A stretch of DNA of 54,221 bases. Source: Azospirillum sp. GTDB lineage: Bacteria; Pseudomonadota; Alphaproteobacteria; CACIAM-22H2. A program made the position numbers and the translations under genes. Below, in pieces: positions 9,220-16,818 of this stretch (its first letter is position 1; the number at the start of each line of letters is the position of its first letter). The DNA lies in contig JADCGK010000124.1 in assembly GCA_020249045.1 (NCBI GenBank), forward strand, positions 1-54,221. Reading direction: 5' to 3'. The notes below the pieces were generated by a model. It did no database searches. It was not told the origin of the DNA and saw only the letters and a list, made by a program, of their open reading frames with translations.

Positions 9220-12200
9220 ATGCGGATCCATCCTGTGGCCGTGGCCATCGTCGGCGCGGCGATCCTCGCGGGCTGCCAGCCCGACGGCCAGCGTCCCGCC
9301 GTCAGCCTCGATCAAGCCCGGCAGATCACCGCGCAGTTCCAGGGTCAAGGCTTCCAGCCCCCACCGCGCACCATTTCCGACATCGCCGCGATCCTCGACC
9401 AGCAGCGTCCCGATCCCGCGCGCGTCGCCGAACTCGTCGCCAAAGCCGAAGCCCCGCCGCCCGCCGGGCCCCAATCGGCGGCCATGGCGCAGTTCTTCTT
9501 CGAACGCGCCAACGCCGCAAGCGAGTTGGGCCGCGCCAAACAGCGTTTGGAGGATACGCGCCGGGCCTACGAAATCGCCCTGGCCGTCGGCGTGCCGCCG
9601 CAGACGCTCCATCGCTACCGCGAGAATGTGGTGGTGTCGCACCGGGTCAACGGCCAGATGCGCGACGCCTTCGCCTTGGGGCGCGAAGCGGTGGCGGCCG
9701 CACCGCCCGGCGGAATGCGCATTGCGGCCCAGTCGATCTTCGTGACGACATCGATCTTCCTGGGCGAATTGCAGGTGGCGCGCGAGGAACTCGGGCGCAT
9801 GGGGTCCAACCTGACCGAAATCCAGAGCAATCCCCGCATGCCCGGCTGGGTGCGCGCCGGCGCCGAGGGCAGCGTCGCGGTGACCGGTGCCGTATTGGCG
9901 CACGAATCCGGCCAATTCGCCGAGGCCGAGCGGCAATATCGGCGCGCGATCGCGGTCATCCAGCCGAACTTGCGCGACGAAGCGAATATCGCCCGGCAGG
10001 CGAATTTGGCGCCCAACCTCTACCGGAATATGGTGCTTCTCTATCGCGGCGGCCTCGCGCAATCGATCCTGCGCCAGGGCCGTTTGGTGGAGGCCGAGGT
10101 CGAGGCGCGCTCGGTTCTGCTCGGCCGGCTGGCGATGAACGGCCGGTACGCGACCGAGACGCTCAACGCCGTGCTTCTCCTCGCGGATGTGTTGATCGAA
10201 CAGGGACGCTTCTCGGAAGCCGAAAGATTGGCCCGCGTCGCCGTCGACTCGCTCGACGCGATGAAATTCGACCCGACCTCGGCGCTGTACGGACGGCCGC
10301 TGCGCCAGATCGCGCGCGCGCAAAGCCAGCGCGGCGAATGGGAGGCGGCCGCCCGGACCTACGCCGATCTTCGCGCGCGGCTTAGCGACAATCCGGATGT
10401 TTTGCGCGCGGCGTTCGACCGCAATCCGAATTGGGCCATGGTCGCCTTGCGCACCGGCCAAGCGGCCGAATCCGAACGCGTGATGACCGCCGTCGTCGCC
10501 CGCAACGTCGAAGTTTTGGGCGAGCGGCACTGGGACACGGCGATGGGTCGCGGCCTGTTGGCGGCGGCCAAGCTCGCGCGCGGCGACGTGCCCGGGGCGC
10601 TGTCGCTGTTCGATGCGGCGATCCCGATTTTGCTCCAATCCTCGCGCCAATCCGACGACGAGGAAACCGGCTCCGTCGCGCGCGATGCCCAAGTCAAAAT
10701 GATCTTCGAAGCGGCGATGGGGGCTTTGGCGCGCTCGGGCCGGGCCGATGCGGCCGCGCAAGCGTTCCGTCTGGCCGACGCGGTGCGCGGGCAGGGCGTG
10801 CAGCGCGCGCTCGCGCAATCCTCCGCGCGCGCGGCCGCCGCCGATCCCGCGCTCGCCGATCTCGTGCGCCGGGAGCAGGACACGCAAAAGCAGGTCGGCG
10901 CTTTGCAGGGGCTGCTGACCAACGTGCTCGCCGCGGCCGAGCGCGACGAGGCGGCCGTGGGCGCGCTGCGCCAGCAGATCGATAGTTTGCGTTCCGCGCG
11001 CGCGGCGCTGCGCGGAGAGATCGAGCGGCGCTTCCCAAGCTACGCGCAGCTGATCGATCCGCGTCCGGCGACGATCGAGGACGCGCGGCGCGGCCTGCGC
11101 CCGGGCGAGGCGCTGATCGCCACCTATGTGGGGCGCGAGCGCAGCTTCGTTTGGGCCGTGCCGCAGGCCGGTGCACCGGCGTTCGCGGCGGTCGACAAGG
11201 GTCAGCGGGCGATCGCCGAGGCGGTCGCGAATTTGCGCAAGGCGCTCGACCCCAACGCCGCCACGTTGGGCGACATTCCGGTTTTCGACGTCGGCCTTGC
11301 GCACGCGCTCTACAACGATCTGCTGAAGCCCATCGAGGCCGGTTTCGCCGACGCGAACTCGCTGCTGGTGGTGCCGCACGACGCGCTCGGCCAGCTGCCG
11401 TTCGGCGTGCTGGTCAGCCAAGCGGCCCCGTTGCGCGCCGAACGCCCGGGCGAAGCGCTGTTCGCCAACTACAAGGACGTCGCCTTCCTGATCCGCAAGG
11501 CCGCGATCACGCAATTGCCGTCTGTCGCCGCGTTGTCGACGCTGCGCGGGCTGCCGGTGCCGCCCGCCGATCGCCGCGCTTTCGTGGGCTTCGGGGATCC
11601 GTGGTTCAGCCCGCAGCAGGCGGCCGAAGCCAAGGCCGAAGCGGCGACCCAATCCGCCCAGTTGCAGACCCGCGGGCTGCAAACGCGTGGCTTGCCGCTC
11701 GTCAGGCGCAACGCGCCGACGACGCAAACCGTGGACAGCGCCGAACTCGGCATGCTGCCGCGCCTGCCCGATACGGCCGATGAGGTCAAAGGCATCGCGC
11801 TGGCGCTCAACGCCGACGCGGCCGATGTGATCCTGGGCGCCCAGGCCAACGAGCGCACGGTCAAGGCGATGGATCTGTCGAACCGCCGGGTCGTGATGTT
11901 CGCGACGCACGGGCTTATCCCGGGCGATCTGAACGGCTTGACCCAGCCGGCCTTGGCGCTTTCGGCGCCCGACGTCGCCGACGTGGATGGGGACGGGCTG
12001 CTGACGCTCGACGAGGTGCTGGCCCTGAAGCTCAACGCCGATTGGGTCGTGCTGTCGGCCTGCAATACGGCGACCGGCGATGGCGCGGGCGCGGAAGCGG
12101 TTTCGGGGCTGGGCCGGGCGTTCTTCTACGCCGGCACGCGGGCGTTGTTGGTGTCCAACTGGCCCGTCGAAACGACGAGCGCGCGCGCCCTGACGACCGA

Positions 12201-12408
12201 CCTGTTCGCCCGCCAAGCGCGCGACCCTGCGCTGGCCCGCGCGCAAGCCCTGCGTGAGGCCATGACCGGATTGATCGAGGGGCCGGGTTATGTCGATCCG
12301 GCCAGCCGGGCGAGCGTTTTCGCCTACGCGCACCCGATCTTCTGGGCGCCGTTCTCGCTGGTGGGCGACGGCGGCGGCAACCTAAGGCAGGTTTCCAAGG
12401 TACAATAA
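9220..12408 (+). CDS. TPR-CHAT domain protease-like lipoprotein
   Basis: The 1062-residue product starts with a lipoprotein leader whose lipobox is AAILAGC (Cys19, followed by Gln, so probably outer-membrane retained). Residues about 30-500 form tetratricopeptide-like repeats (for example GQFAEAERQYRRAIAVI and GDVPGALSLFDAAIPILL). A coiled-coil segment spans about 540-610, and residues about 620-1062 are a CHAT (caspase-HetF-associated TPR) domain. The CHAT dyad is intact: FATHG with His897 and VVLSACNT with Cys948. Between them residues 921-932 (DVDGDGLLTLDE) fit a canonical EF-hand loop. It precedes a caspase-like gene, a FecR-like gene and a CHASE2 cyclase gene on the same strand. Substrate and activator are unknown; protease activity is inferred from the dyad. 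Confidence 0.9.
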   Translation: MRIHPVAVAIVGAAILAGCQPDGQRPAVSLDQARQITAQFQGQGFQPPPRTISDIAAILDQQRPDPARVAELVAKAEAPPPAGPQSAAMAQFFFERANAASELGRAKQRLEDTRRAYEIALAVGVPPQTLHRYRENVVVSHRVNGQMRDAFALGREAVAAAPPGGMRIAAQSIFVTTSIFLGELQVAREELGRMGSNLTEIQSNPRMPGWVRAGAEGSVAVTGAVLAHESGQFAEAERQYRRAIAVIQPNLRDEANIARQANLAPNLYRNMVLLYRGGLAQSILRQGRLVEAEVEARSVLLGRLAMNGRYATETLNAVLLLADVLIEQGRFSEAERLARVAVDSLDAMKFDPTSALYGRPLRQIARAQSQRGEWEAAARTYADLRARLSDNPDVLRAAFDRNPNWAMVALRTGQAAESERVMTAVVARNVEVLGERHWDTAMGRGLLAAAKLARGDVPGALSLFDAAIPILLQSSRQSDDEETGSVARDAQVKMIFEAAMGALARSGRADAAAQAFRLADAVRGQGVQRALAQSSARAAAADPALADLVRREQDTQKQVGALQGLLTNVLAAAERDEAAVGALRQQIDSLRSARAALRGEIERRFPSYAQLIDPRPATIEDARRGLRPGEALIATYVGRERSFVWAVPQAGAPAFAAVDKGQRAIAEAVANLRKALDPNAATLGDIPVFDVGLAHALYNDLLKPIEAGFADANSLLVVPHDALGQLPFGVLVSQAAPLRAERPGEALFANYKDVAFLIRKAAITQLPSVAALSTLRGLPVPPADRRAFVGFGDPWFSPQQAAEAKAEAATQSAQLQTRGLQTRGLPLVRRNAPTTQTVDSAELGMLPRLPDTADEVKGIALALNADAADVILGAQANERTVKAMDLSNRRVVMFATHGLIPGDLNGLTQPALALSAPDVADVDGDGLLTLDEVLALKLNADWVVLSACNTATGDGAGAEAVSGLGRAFFYAGTRALLVSNWPVETTSARALTTDLFARQARDPALARAQALREAMTGLIEGPGYVDPASRASVFAYAHPIFWAPFSLVGDGGGNLRQVSKVQ

Positions 12409-12410
12409 TC

Positions 12411-12432
12411 GTCTGTGACGATGATCACAGAC
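12411..12432. promoter_or_regulatory. CRP/FNR-family palindrome (perfect TGTGA-N6-TCACA)
   Basis: Half-sites GTCTGTGA (12411-12418) and TCACAGAC (12425-12432) are exact inverted repeats around a six-base centre, containing the full cAMP receptor protein core TGTGA-N6-TCACA. It lies in the 82-bp gap between the TPR-CHAT and caspase genes, with the centre about 69 bp before the caspase ATG. A weak -10 candidate, TATCTA, lies at 12461-12466. No T-run follows, so it is a poor terminator. Binding by a CRP homologue is inferred. Confidence 0.65.
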
Positions 12433-12490
12433 TTGCTCTTCGAAATCGCTATGGTACGCTTATCTAGGTTGTGTCCTGGGGGCGTAAGGC

Positions 12491-13939
12491 ATGCGGAAAT
12501 ACGCGGGAAAACTGGGAATTCTGTTGATCGGTGCGCTGATGGCGGCGCTTCCCGTCGGGCCCGCTTTCGCCGCGAAGAAAGTCGCGTTGGTCGTCGGCAA
12601 CGCGAACTATGCCGAGGCACCCTTGCGCAACCCCGTGAACGACGCGCGCGCGATCGCCCGTCAACTGCGCGGAAAGGGGTTCGAAGTTCTGCTGCGCGAG
12701 AACGTGACCAAAGCGCAGTTTTCGGAAGCGGTGGCGGATTTCGGGGAGAGGATTTCGGCTGGCGACACGGCTTTGTTCTTCTATGCGGGTCATGGACTGC
12801 AGGTGCAGGGCCGAAACTATCTGGTTCCGATCGACGCGCGGATCACCTCCGAACAGCGCGTACGGCTGGAGGCGATGGATGTCGAGGCCGTGCTCGATCA
12901 GACGACGGCCGCCAAGGCCAAGGTCAGCTTGGTGATTTTGGACGCGTGCCGGAACAATCCTTTCGAACGGCGCTTTCGCTCGACCGGTGGCGGTCTCGCG
13001 CAGATCAATGCGCCCGAAGGCACGTTGATCGCGTATGCGACAGCCCCGGGGAAGGTAGCGGCGGATGGGGAGGGCTCGAACGGGCTCTACACCCAAGCAC
13101 TACTGAGCGCACTGGCCGAACCCGGACTGAAGGTGGAGGAAGTCTTCAAGAACGTGCGCATCGAGGTCGCGCGCGTGTCCGGCGGCGCGCAGATTCCGTG
13201 GGAAGCCTCTTCGTTGACGGGCGATTTTTTCTTCGTCCCGCCGGTCGAACAGACGGCCGTGCGCGAAGCGATGTTCTGGGACTCGGTGAAAGGGTCGACC
13301 GACCCGGCCGAGCTCAACGCCTATCTGACGCTTTATCCCAACGGCCATTTCGCGCCGATCGCGCGCGCGCGTATCGCGGCGGTGGAGGCGGCACGGGCGC
13401 TCGCCACGGCCGAGGCCGAACGCAACCGCCAGGCCGCCGACGCGGCGCGTCAGGCAGCCGAAGCCGCCCGCGCGCGGGAAGTCCAAGAAACCGCCCGTGC
13501 CAGCGGCGAAGCCGAGTGGGCGCAGCGTGTCGTCGACGAATTTCGCGCGTCGTCGGCGCGGCAGGTCGCCTCGACCGTCGCCGCCAGCGCCGTGCCGCGC
13601 GCTTTCGCGCCGATCAACGGGACTTTCGTAACCTTGGTCGGCGCGGCGGTTTTCGGGAACGTCCCCATTCAATCTTTCTTCACCGTCGAGGACGGCGTCT
13701 TCCGCTTGACGGCATCCAGCCATCAGACCAACGGGGTGCAGAGCGTCCGTTGTCTGGGAGTCGGCGTGATCGGCATCGATCGGTCGATAGCACCGATCGA
13801 GGTACAGTGCTCGACTCATGCCGACGGAGTTTCGAGCATCACCGCCTCAGGGAGGGTGGTCGAGACCGGCGGGAGGCCGCGCATCGAAGTCGAACTCGTG
13901 ACCGCGCGTGGCCGAAAGCACGAAGTCGTTTTCCGGTAG
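12491..13939 (+). CDS. Exported caspase-like (peptidase C14) protein
   Basis: A 482-residue protein with a Sec signal peptide (LGILLIGALMAALPVGPAFA) and a caspase p20-like domain at residues about 28-260. The catalytic pair is visible as FFYAGHGLQVQGRNYLVP with His101 and VILDACRNNPF with Cys153. The segment EGTLIAYATAPGKVAADGEG follows as in bacterial orthocaspases. Residues about 290-355 are an Ala/Glu/Arg-rich helix, and about 365-482 form a beta-rich C-terminal domain of unknown type. The start follows the CRP-type palindrome. A periplasmic location is predicted, which is unusual for proteins thought of in terms of cytoplasmic cell death. Substrate is unknown. Confidence 0.9.
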   Translation: MRKYAGKLGILLIGALMAALPVGPAFAAKKVALVVGNANYAEAPLRNPVNDARAIARQLRGKGFEVLLRENVTKAQFSEAVADFGERISAGDTALFFYAGHGLQVQGRNYLVPIDARITSEQRVRLEAMDVEAVLDQTTAAKAKVSLVILDACRNNPFERRFRSTGGGLAQINAPEGTLIAYATAPGKVAADGEGSNGLYTQALLSALAEPGLKVEEVFKNVRIEVARVSGGAQIPWEASSLTGDFFFVPPVEQTAVREAMFWDSVKGSTDPAELNAYLTLYPNGHFAPIARARIAAVEAARALATAEAERNRQAADAARQAAEAARAREVQETARASGEAEWAQRVVDEFRASSARQVASTVAASAVPRAFAPINGTFVTLVGAAVFGNVPIQSFFTVEDGVFRLTASSHQTNGVQSVRCLGVGVIGIDRSIAPIEVQCSTHADGVSSITASGRVVETGGRPRIEVELVTARGRKHEVVFR

Positions 13940-13961: not shown

Positions 13962-13977
13962 TGTGACCGTCGTCATT
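13962..13977. promoter_or_regulatory. Degenerate CRP-like site
   Basis: TGTGA (13962-13966), six bases, then TCATT (13973-13977) matches 8 of 10 positions of the CRP core. It overlaps the -35 element of the candidate promoter for the following gene. Taken alone it could be chance; it gains weight only from the perfect site 1.5 kb upstream in the same locus. Confidence 0.3.
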
Positions 13978-14003
13978 GCCGGGTCCTGCGGATCGGGTAG
14001 GAT
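13976..14003 (+). promoter_or_regulatory. Candidate promoter for FecR-like/cyclase genes
   Basis: A -35-like TTGCCG (13976-13981) and a -10-like TAGGAT (13998-14003) are separated by 16 bp, 22 bp before the next ATG. A purine-rich ribosome binding site (acgagggggg) lies between. The elements are imperfect, so this is a moderate-to-weak call. Confidence 0.35.
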
Positions 14004-14025: not shown

Positions 14026-14697
14026 ATGCGCCGAATTCTCACCGCCGCCGCGATCCTGGCCATCAGCGCCGGGGCCGCTTCAGCCCAGCAAGCAGCACTT
14101 GTCGAGGACGCCAAGGGCCGCAATCTCGACGTCGATTTCATGGACTATGTCGACGCCGGTCGCGTCATCAAACTCGGTCCCAACGACGAACTCGTGCTCG
14201 GCTACCTGCGTTCGTGCTGGCGGGAGACGATCAAGGGCGGGACGGTGACCGTCGGCGCCGAGCAATCGACCGTCGAGGGCGGGACGGTGCGCCGCCAAAA
14301 GGTCGAATGCGACGGCGGACGCATGCGTCTGACCCAGGCGCAGTCGGGGCAAGCCGGTGTGATGGTCTTCCGTGCGCCGCCGCGTCCGGCGGGCGCGGGG
14401 GCATCGGCGACGCCGCAGACCACGCTTTACGGCCTATCGCCGGTGATCGAAGTCCAGGGCGGGGGCACCGTCACGATCGAACGCGTCGATCAACCGGGCG
14501 AAAAGCTGACCGTGCAGGTCGCCGCCCGGCAGCTTCAGCGCGGCGCGTTCCACGACCTCGCCAAAGCCGATCAGGCGCTCGTCGCGGGCGGGGTCTATCG
14601 CGCCTCCGCCGGACCGGGGCGCGAGATCGTTTTCAAGATCGATCCCGAGGCCAAGCCCGGCCAAGCGCCGATCGTGTCGCGGCTTTTGCGTCTCTGA
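14026..14697 (+). CDS. Exported FecR-like protein of unknown function
   Basis: The product (223 aa) has a signal peptide (ILTAAAILAISAGAASAQ) and should reach the periplasm. Its first half has the pattern DYVDAGRVIKLGPNDELVLG, then SC near residue 64, GGTVTVGAEQSTVEGG and a second cysteine in VECDGG at residue 95. This resembles the small beta-sandwich FecR-like domains found beside CHASE2 proteins; Cys64 and Cys95 could form a disulfide. The second half (about 135-223) looks like another beta domain. Its stop codon is immediately followed by the cyclase ATG, so the two are co-translated and may interact across the membrane. I do not recognise a named family with certainty. Confidence 0.7.
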   Translation: MRRILTAAAILAISAGAASAQQAALVEDAKGRNLDVDFMDYVDAGRVIKLGPNDELVLGYLRSCWRETIKGGTVTVGAEQSTVEGGTVRRQKVECDGGRMRLTQAQSGQAGVMVFRAPPRPAGAGASATPQTTLYGLSPVIEVQGGGTVTIERVDQPGEKLTVQVAARQLQRGAFHDLAKADQALVAGGVYRASAGPGREIVFKIDPEAKPGQAPIVSRLLRL

Positions 14698-16818
14698 ATG
14701 AAGCCGCGCGAGATCGCCGTCGCCGCAGCGATCGTTGCGGCCGTCTCGGTGTTTCCGGCGACGCCGTGGGGCGAGCGCGCGGCCGGCCTTTCGCTCGACG
14801 CGGGCTTCGCCGTCCGGCACGCGGTGTTCGGTCCCGCGCGCGGGCCCGAAGCCTCGAACGTCGTCGTCATCGCCGTGGACGAGGAAACGCACCGCACGCC
14901 GCCCTTCGGCGGCTTGCCGCAGGCGCTGTGGACGCGCGAGATCGCCCCGGTGCTCAACGCCGTGCTCGACGCCGAGGCGAAGATCGTCGCCTTCGATTTG
15001 ATCTTCCCGACCTCGGTCGAGCGGCTCGTGCCCGGATTCGAACGGGAGTTCCTGCGCGCGTTGCGCGCCGGGGCCCGGGAGGGCCGCGTGCTGCTCGGCA
15101 AGGTCCAACACCAAACGCAGCCGATCGCGCCGTTCCAGGGCCAAAGCTTCGCCGTCGGCCATGCCGAGAACATCCGTGCGGTCAACCTGCTTGCCGATCG
15201 CGACGATGCGATCCGCCGCGTGCCGTTGTTCCTGGAGGCGGAAGTTGCCGGCGGCGCCGTGCGCCGGGAAACCGCCTTCGCGTTGGAGATCGCTTCGCGG
15301 TTCGCGGGCGCGCCGGCCGTCGAAAACGACGGGCGCGTGCTGTTCGCGGGCAAGCCGCTGGGCGGCGTGCGCGACAACGCCATGCCGATCGACTTCGTGG
15401 GCGGCGGGCGCGACGTTCCGGTCTTCTCGCTCGCCGATCTGCGCGCGTGCGCGGAAAAGGACGACGCCGCGTTCTTCAAGCGGCATTTCTCCGGAAAGGC
15501 GGTCCTGATCGGCGTCGTGCTCGACGTCGAAGACCGGAAGATCACCTCCAAGCGTTTTGTGACCGGGCCCGAGGGGGCCGGTGCCGCGCCGCGTTGCGCG
15601 CTGGAGCCGCGCGCGGACCTCGTCAAGGCCGGGTTCGTGCGCGAGGCCGTCCCGGGCGTGCTCATCCACGCCGCGGCGATCGAAAACTTTCTGCGCGGCC
15701 ACGGCTTGCGCGAACTCGCGCCGGTCGAGCGTGCCTTGGCGGCCTTGCCCGGCGTGGGCCTCGCCGCGGCCGCGGCCTTGGCGTTGCCCGCCGGTTTCGC
15801 GGCGGCGGCGCTCGCCGCCCTCGCCGCGGCGTGGACGGCCGTCGCCACGCTGGCCCTGCAAAACGCGGTGGTGCTGCCTTGGCTCGACGGACTCGTCGCC
15901 GCCGCCCTCGCCGCCGCGTTGACGATGGGCTGGCGCTTCGCCGTTTCGGACAAGGACAAACGGTTTTTGCGCCAAAGCTTCGCGCTTTATCTCGCGCCGG
16001 CGGTCGTCGACAAGCTGGTCGAAAGCGACAAGCCGCCGCAATTGGGCGGGGAGGAACGCGAGATCTCCGTCCTGTTCTCGGACGTCGCGGGATTCACGGG
16101 GCTCTCAGAGGGGCTGACGCCCGCCGAACTCGTGTCGACGATGAACGTCTACCTCAGCGCGATGACCGAGATCGTCGAGGCGCATGGCGGTTTCGTCGAC
16201 AAGTACATCGGCGATGCGATCGTCGCCGTGTTCGGCGCACCGCTCGACGATCCCGCGCACGCGAGCAACGCGGTCGCCGCCGCGCTCGAATGCCAGGCGA
16301 AGCTCGCCGCGCTCAACGCCGATCCCGCCCGGCCGTTCCGCGGCAAGACGCTCGGCGCGCGCATCGGCGTCAATACCGGCCGCGCGCTGGTCGGCAACAT
16401 CGGCTCGGCGCGCCGCTTCAACTACACGGTCATGGGCGACACCGTGAACCTCGCCTCGCGCTTGGAAGGGGCCAACAAGTATTTCGGCTCGGCGATCATG
16501 GTCGCGGATGCGACGCGCGGCGCCGCGGGCGAAAGCGGGTTCGTCTGGCGCGAACTCGACCGGACCAAGGTCAAAGGCCGCGCCGCGCCGGTCGGGATCC
16601 ACGAACCGTTGCCCGCCGCGCGCGCGGATGCCGCCGGTCCTTACGCCGAGGCATTGGCCAAGTATCGCGCGCGCGATTTCGACGGCGCCGCGGCCATCCT
16701 GCGCGCGAACGCGGCGCGCGACCCGGCGGCCGCGTCGCTGCTGGCGCGGGTGGAGGATCTGCGCGCGGCCCCGCCGGGTCCGGACTGGGCGGCGATCACC
16801 GCGCTCGAAGGGAAGTGA
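14698..16818 (+). CDS. CHASE2 sensor / class III adenylate cyclase
   Basis: A 706-residue membrane receptor cyclase. An N-terminal hydrophobic helix (about 5-22) leads into a periplasmic CHASE2 sensor (about 25-330, with FGGLPQALWTREIAPVLNAV and VVVIAVDEETHRTPPF). Next come a cluster of transmembrane helices at about 345-420 and a class III cyclase domain at about 445-640. Metal-binding aspartates are Asp462 in LFSDVAGFTG and Asp506 in DKYIGDAIVAVFG. YTVMGDTVNLASRLE fits adenylate rather than guanylate cyclases. It directly follows the FecR-like gene with no gap, so an extracytoplasmic protein signal converted to cAMP is a reasonable inference. Its 3' end overlaps the convergent racemase-fold gene by 23 bp. 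Confidence 0.9.
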   Translation: MKPREIAVAAAIVAAVSVFPATPWGERAAGLSLDAGFAVRHAVFGPARGPEASNVVVIAVDEETHRTPPFGGLPQALWTREIAPVLNAVLDAEAKIVAFDLIFPTSVERLVPGFEREFLRALRAGAREGRVLLGKVQHQTQPIAPFQGQSFAVGHAENIRAVNLLADRDDAIRRVPLFLEAEVAGGAVRRETAFALEIASRFAGAPAVENDGRVLFAGKPLGGVRDNAMPIDFVGGGRDVPVFSLADLRACAEKDDAAFFKRHFSGKAVLIGVVLDVEDRKITSKRFVTGPEGAGAAPRCALEPRADLVKAGFVREAVPGVLIHAAAIENFLRGHGLRELAPVERALAALPGVGLAAAAALALPAGFAAAALAALAAAWTAVATLALQNAVVLPWLDGLVAAALAAALTMGWRFAVSDKDKRFLRQSFALYLAPAVVDKLVESDKPPQLGGEEREISVLFSDVAGFTGLSEGLTPAELVSTMNVYLSAMTEIVEAHGGFVDKYIGDAIVAVFGAPLDDPAHASNAVAAALECQAKLAALNADPARPFRGKTLGARIGVNTGRALVGNIGSARRFNYTVMGDTVNLASRLEGANKYFGSAIMVADATRGAAGESGFVWRELDRTKVKGRAAPVGIHEPLPAARADAAGPYAEALAKYRARDFDGAAAILRANAARDPAAASLLARVEDLRAAPPGPDWAAITALEGK

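What the first reader, a model, noticed from the sequence alone, without database searches (positions are those of the whole stretch)
12411..12432. Perfect CRP-type palindrome inside a locus that encodes an adenylate cyclase
Exact inverted repeats GTCTGTGA and TCACAGAC flank six bases, giving the full TGTGA-N6-TCACA core. It sits in the gap before the caspase gene, while the cyclase lies two genes downstream. A cAMP feedback loop on the island is the simplest reading.
Basis: partly seen in the sequence, partly recalled or inferred. Interest (0 to 1): 0.7.

Follow-up and report, generated by a model that had tools for sequence, protein, structure and literature searches.

The report
CRP-type switch before caspase–cyclase operon
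A short DNA palindrome in front of a bacterial operon for a caspase-like protease and an enzyme that makes cyclic AMP looks like a genuine landing site for a cyclic-AMP-sensing activator, so the operon probably amplifies its own signal; the same arrangement recurs in related bacteria, with or without the caspase gene.

Summary
The palindrome GTCTGTGA-CGATGA-TCACAGAC is exactly at 12411-12432. It lies two bases after the CHAT-TPR stop and 58 bases before the caspase ATG. It is not a chance match. The TGTGA-N6-TCACA core recurs at the same junction in other Tagaea-group genomes, in two further genera, and before the same hypothetical-protein/CHASE2-cyclase operon in distant Alphaproteobacteria. 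In 40 upstream windows, 11 hold the dyad with at most one mismatch, against a mean of 0.14 for 29 permuted dyads, and only at a spacing of six. A -10-like hexamer lies 20 bases downstream (20-22 in relatives), which is class II CRP activator geometry (centre about -40.5). The site follows the cyclase operon, not the caspase: relatives that lack the caspase keep it. The genome encodes one conserved CRP homologue with the CRP-type recognition helix (TRETVAR) and a cyclic-nucleotide pocket. The cyclase has adenylate-cyclase-type residues. Best reading: a CRP-activated promoter closing a positive cAMP loop, with the caspase captured under it in some lineages. This resembles the proven CgrA cyclase loop of Rhodospirillum centenum, with different genes. 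Binding, nucleotide identity and loop sign are untested. 'Island' is not supported.

The parts
9220..12408 (+). TPR-CHAT protein (1062 aa); its stop codon lies two bases before the palindrome
   Evidence: Pfam CHAT E 2.2e-50, TPR_12
12411..12432 (.). Palindrome GTCTGTGA-N6-TCACAGAC
12414..12429 (.). CRP-type core TGTGA-CGATGA-TCACA, predicted activator site centred near -40.5
   Evidence: conserved across genera; dyad test 11 of 40 windows versus mean 0.14 for permuted dyads
12450..12455 (+). -10-like hexamer TATGGT, 20 bases after the core; no -35 consensus found
   Evidence: TAnnnT at 20-22 bases in 11 of 13 family sites; no sigma-70 promoter found at 12300-12600
12491..13939 (+). Caspase (Peptidase_C14) protein with N-terminal signal-like segment; H101 and C153 invariant in the five aligned orthologues
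   Evidence: Pfam E 4.8e-44; alignment A1
13962..13977 (.). Second, weaker CRP-like site TGTGACCGTCGTCATT (2 mismatches), found in G000 only, in the caspase-hypothetical gene gap
   Evidence: sequence; not in G001, G003, G005, G008
13998..14003 (+). -10-like TAGGAT, 20 bases after the second site
14026..14697 (+). Hypothetical secreted-looking protein (223 aa, no Pfam family), found in 26 of 385 alphaproteobacterial genomes sampled (20 genera), usually next to a cyclase
14698..16818 (+). CHASE2 class III cyclase (706 aa); K502 and T577 at the base-specifying positions as in bacterial adenylate cyclases
   Evidence: Pfam Guanylate_cyc 6e-24, CHASE2 1.6e-21; alignments to CyaB and OaPAC

Best explanation
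12414-12429 is the activator site of a class II CRP-type promoter. A cyclic-nucleotide-loaded CRP homologue (best candidate: the 236-aa protein on contig C205 of the same genome) binds TGTGA-N6-TCACA, contacts RNA polymerase at the TATGGT -10 and switches on the caspase-hypothetical protein-CHASE2 cyclase operon. The CHASE2 cyclase makes more cAMP when its periplasmic sensor is triggered, which loads more CRP: a positive loop. The loop does not depend on the caspase; in some Tagaea-type genomes the caspase lies between promoter and cyclase, so its dose would rise with the signal. Shown here: sequence, conservation, geometry, gene order, and the presence and key residues of the CRP homologue and cyclase. 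Inferred: binding, ligand, activation, the loop, and any proteolytic outcome.
For: Core kept at the CHAT stop/next-gene junction in G000, G001, G005, G006, G007 and G009 (0-1 mismatch) and, degenerate, G010; before the caspase in G003 (GTGA-N6-TCAC) although another gene separates CHAT and caspase there; before the cyclase operon and separately before the caspase in G022 (genus g7); before CHAT and before the caspase in G015 (genus g3). Distant alphas G318, G380, G059 and G283 too. Dyad test: 11 of 40 windows versus mean 0.14, maximum 1, over 29 permuted half-sites; other spacings at most 1. TAnnnT exactly 20-22 bases after the core in 11 of 13 family sites (8 of 10 after dropping near-duplicates, binomial about 1e-15), although the intervening DNA has diverged. 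CRP homologue with TTRETVARV recognition helix, GE..PRT pocket, full cNMP and HTH_Crp_2 domains; nearest solved structures are CRP/FNR-family regulators including E. coli CAP; orthologues in all 11 genus genomes. The four genomes with no CRP orthologue (G012, G017, G047, G247) also lack a convincing site. Precedent: R. centenum CgrA footprint on TGTGA-N6-TCACA before RC1_3785-gcyB-gcyC-cgrA, a feed-forward cyclase loop (PMC4681086).
Against: No binding or expression data. G002 keeps CHAT-hypothetical-cyclase and the CRP gene but lacks the site, and most distant genomes with the operon lack it. The fixed -10 spacing is not a general feature of other near-consensus sites in these genomes (4 seen, 3.25 expected). 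The genome has at least seven other class III cyclase domains, so the loop need not be closed by this enzyme alone. The CRP gene is unlinked and shows no such site of its own within the fetched flanks in Tagaea.
Confidence: 0.68

Rival explanations
1. A CRP/FNR-family protein binds the site and controls the operon, but the ligand is cGMP or something else, or the binder is another family member, so there is no cAMP loop through this cyclase.
For: R. centenum CgrA, a TGTGA-N6-TCACA binder, uses cGMP (PMC4681086); the pocket here reads R-T rather than R-S; other CRP/FNR-type HTH proteins exist in the genome (C150, C178, C226).
Against: C150 and C178 have FNR/FixK-type helices (TETVCR, TTETVSR) expected to read TTGAT half-sites (established knowledge); C226 reads TRQWVT. 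Cyclase residues K502/T577 match adenylate cyclases.
Confidence: 0.2
2. The palindrome is an intrinsic terminator of the CHAT gene.
For: It starts two bases after the stop; 8-bp stem, -11.6 kcal/mol; the scan flags it as terminator-like on both strands.
Against: The tail TTGCTCTTCG is a poor U-tract. The outer arm is not conserved and orthologues fold differently. The site moves with the promoter: in G003 it is far from the CHAT stop, in G015 before CHAT, in G022 with no CHAT hit beside it.
Confidence: 0.04
3. A CRP site used for repression (as at E. coli cya) rather than activation: a negative cAMP loop.
For: Known direction of CRP control at E. coli cya (own knowledge).
Against: The centre lies near -40.5 with no -35 consensus, the class II activator position.
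Confidence: 0.07
4. Chance palindrome.
For: With one mismatch allowed, 26% of window shuffles contain a match.
Against: Conservation and dyad test.
Confidence: 0.01

Closest known systems
CgrA-RC1_3785-gcyB-gcyC-cgrA feed-forward loop of Rhodospirillum centenum (PMC4681086)
   Same: CRP homologue, same TGTGA-N6-TCACA core at the promoter of cyclase genes, proposed positive loop, alphaproteobacterium
   Different: cGMP and guanylyl cyclase subunits; the regulator gene is in the cluster; no CHAT, caspase or CHASE2 protein mentioned in the passages read. Here the regulator is unlinked and the cyclase looks like an adenylate cyclase.
E. coli CRP (CAP) class II promoters
   Same: Core motif, about -41 position, missing -35, CRP-type RExxxR recognition helix
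   Different: Different host and genes; E. coli cya is class I and repressed by CRP (own knowledge)
Clr of Sinorhizobium meliloti (PMC10127613)
   Same: Alphaproteobacterial CRP activated by cAMP/cGMP; cyaF2 promoter among its characterised sites
   Different: Clr motif is GTNNCNNNNGNNAC, not TGTGA-N6-TCACA
mtxA-CHASE2 cyclase cluster of magnetotactic bacteria (PMC4439547)
   Same: Secreted partner protein gene followed by a CHASE2 adenylate cyclase gene
   Different: No detectable similarity of the window partner to any solved structure, the MtxA C-terminal part included; no CRP site seen in the passages read

Membership tests
CRP-type operator | TGTGA-N6-TCACA core | tested here: met
   exact, 12414-12429
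CRP-type operator | Conserved at orthologous promoters above matched controls | tested here: met
CRP-type operator | Fixed spacing to a -10 (class II) | tested here: met
   20-22 bases in 11 of 13 family sites
CRP-type operator | Cognate regulator with CRP-type recognition helix and cNMP pocket in the genome | tested here: met
   C205 protein, TTRETVAR, GEIAAIDGCPRTA
CRP-type operator | cNMP-dependent binding in vitro | not testable with these tools
   needs gel shift or footprint
CgrA-type cyclase feed-forward loop | Site at the promoter of a cyclase operon | tested here: met
   caspase-hypothetical-cyclase on one strand, site upstream
CgrA-type cyclase feed-forward loop | Regulator gene in the same cluster | tested here: not met
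   CRP homologue on C205, window on C29
CgrA-type cyclase feed-forward loop | Guanylyl cyclase product cGMP | tested here: inconclusive
   K502/T577 suggest ATP as substrate; no assay
Intrinsic terminator | G+C-rich stem then U-tract, stem conserved | tested here: not met
   poor tail, stem not conserved
Class III adenylate cyclase | Catalytic domain with metal Asp pair, Lys/Thr base contacts, Asn/Arg | tested here: met
   D462, D506, K502, T577, N584, R588 invariant in A2 and aligned with solved cyclases
Pycsar defence system | Pycsar cyclase with dedicated effector | tested here: inconclusive
   PycC models hit only the shared class III domain; CHASE2 architecture and partner differ; not filed there

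The most novel reading that the evidence does not exclude
An old, self-amplifying cAMP circuit of Alphaproteobacteria, made of a CHAT protease-like protein, a secreted partner, a CHASE2 adenylate cyclase and a CRP-activated promoter, has captured a caspase in some lineages, so that a bistable cAMP switch sets caspase dose: a second-messenger-controlled bacterial caspase.
Probability: 0.3. Interest if true: 0.72.

Novelty: new variant of a known kind. Interest (0 to 1): 0.5.

Why it matters
It makes a prediction about how a bacterial caspase/CHAT/cyclase locus is switched on, a question usually left open for bacterial caspases, and it gives a directly testable site, regulator and start point. 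It also suggests that CRP control of a cyclase operon, shown for cGMP in R. centenum, recurs around a likely adenylate cyclase in several alphaproteobacterial families.

Tried and rejected
Terminator reading. Caspase-specific operator: rejected because caspase-less relatives keep the site. A genus-wide class II rule for all near-consensus sites: not seen. Autoregulation of the CRP gene by the same motif in Tagaea: none found in the fetched flanks. The other exact core in the genome (C18:10227) is probably not informative for CRP: it sits beside an ArsR-methyltransferase gene and near-identical sites recur in G002, G003 and G004, so it may be that regulator's operator. Pycsar membership. A direct literature link of CHASE2 cyclase with caspase and CHAT: none found in the held library. 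The coding/intergenic heuristic is rough and carries little weight.

Full report
OBSERVATION. It starts two bases after the CHAT-TPR stop and ends 58 bases before the caspase ATG; a 223-aa hypothetical protein and a CHASE2 class III cyclase follow on the same strand. By itself the window statistic is modest, so comparative evidence was needed.

CONSERVATION. In G001 and G005, where CHAT, caspase, hypothetical gene and cyclase are syntenic, the gap keeps TGTGACGGCCGTCACA and TGTGACGGCGGTCACT. In G003 another small gene lies between CHAT and caspase, yet AGTGAGCTAGATCACT sits just before the caspase. In G006, G007 and G009 no caspase lies between CHAT and the hypothetical gene, and the site is still at the CHAT stop; G010 has a two-mismatch version. 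In genus g7 (G022) the cyclase operon and an unlinked caspase each carry a site; in genus g3 (G015) CHAT and an unlinked caspase each carry one. Among distant Alphaproteobacteria with the hypothetical gene-cyclase pair, G318, G380, G059 and G283 have it with at most one mismatch. It is missing in G002, G012, G017 and most distant genomes.

CONTROLS. In 40 upstream windows (10.4 kb) the dyad with at most one mismatch occurs in 11, against a mean of 0.14 and maximum of 1 for 29 permuted half-sites; other spacings give 0-1. Related sequences are not independent, but the family and the distant class members contribute separately (7 and 4 windows). Genus-wide, the forward motif exceeds its reversed control, 168 to 58 over 11 genomes (13 to 0 in the host).

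GEOMETRY. TAnnnT begins 20-22 bases after the core in 11 of 13 family sites (8 of 10 after removing near-duplicates; background about 0.9% per site). In the window it is TATGGT at 12450-12455, which puts a start near 12462 and the centre near -40.5. No sigma-70 promoter with a -35 was found. This is the class II activator arrangement (established CRP knowledge). It is specific to these promoters: 72 other near-consensus sites show no such excess.

REGULATOR. Four CRP/FNR-type HTH proteins pass the search convincingly. Only the C205 protein has the CRP-type helix TRETVAR together with a GE..PRT phosphate-binding cassette. Its nearest solved structures are CRP/FNR-family regulators including E. 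coli CAP. It is present in all 11 genus genomes. Genomes G012, G017, G047 and G247, which have the hypothetical gene but no such orthologue, also lack a convincing site; the numbers are too small for a test.

CYCLASE. Catalytic Asp pair, Lys502, Thr577, Asn584 and Arg588 are present and invariant in three orthologues, aligning with CyaB and OaPAC; this predicts ATP as substrate. At least seven other cyclase domains exist in the genome.

MECHANISM. Shown: site, conservation, geometry, gene order, candidate regulator and enzyme. Inferred: cNMP-CRP binds at about -40.5, activates the operon, the cyclase raises cAMP, positive feedback. The caspase (catalytic His101/Cys153 invariant in the five aligned orthologues) would be co-induced. 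In the host a second degenerate site with the same 20-base spacing lies between caspase and hypothetical gene (13962-14003). It is absent from the relatives compared, whose gap is short; it may be a remnant of a promoter that predates the caspase (inference).

KNOWN SYSTEMS. R. centenum CgrA binds TGTGA-N6-TCACA before RC1_3785-gcyB-gcyC-cgrA and drives cGMP feed-forward (PMC4681086). The present case works like it, but the regulator is unlinked and the enzyme looks adenylyl, so it is not filed as the same system. Clr of S. meliloti uses a different motif (PMC10127613).

VERDICT.

Noticed in passing
L025 5228-5243 (G000:C18:10227); L176, L189, L199 at 401-416: Another exact or near TGTGA-N6-TCACA palindrome, shared by four genomes; in G000, G003 and G004 it lies between an MlaA-type gene and a gene for an ArsR-methyltransferase protein (near metF/metH genes in G000); possibly that regulator's operator.
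   Followed up: partly
L174, L184, L188, L208 at about 401-416: A second conserved CRP-like site in four Tagaea-group genomes, after a NonGDSL lipase-like gene and before a small membrane protein gene.
   Followed up: partly
window 14026-16818; L224-L251: A hypothetical secreted protein with no Pfam family is often paired with a CHASE2 cyclase, frequently with CHAT upstream, in about 20 alphaproteobacterial genera; resembles the mtxA-cyclase arrangement.
   Followed up: partly
window 13400-13939: The caspase C-terminal part is far less conserved than its protease domain (77% identity over residues 8-303 in G001 and G005, about 30% after).
   Followed up: no
L142 (G010), reverse strand, about 10320-10330: The CHAT gene of G010 matches in two pieces in different frames, so it is probably frameshifted.
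   Followed up: no
L029 4797-5879: A TnpB-like protein gene lies about 2 kb from the CRP homologue gene on contig C205.
   Followed up: no
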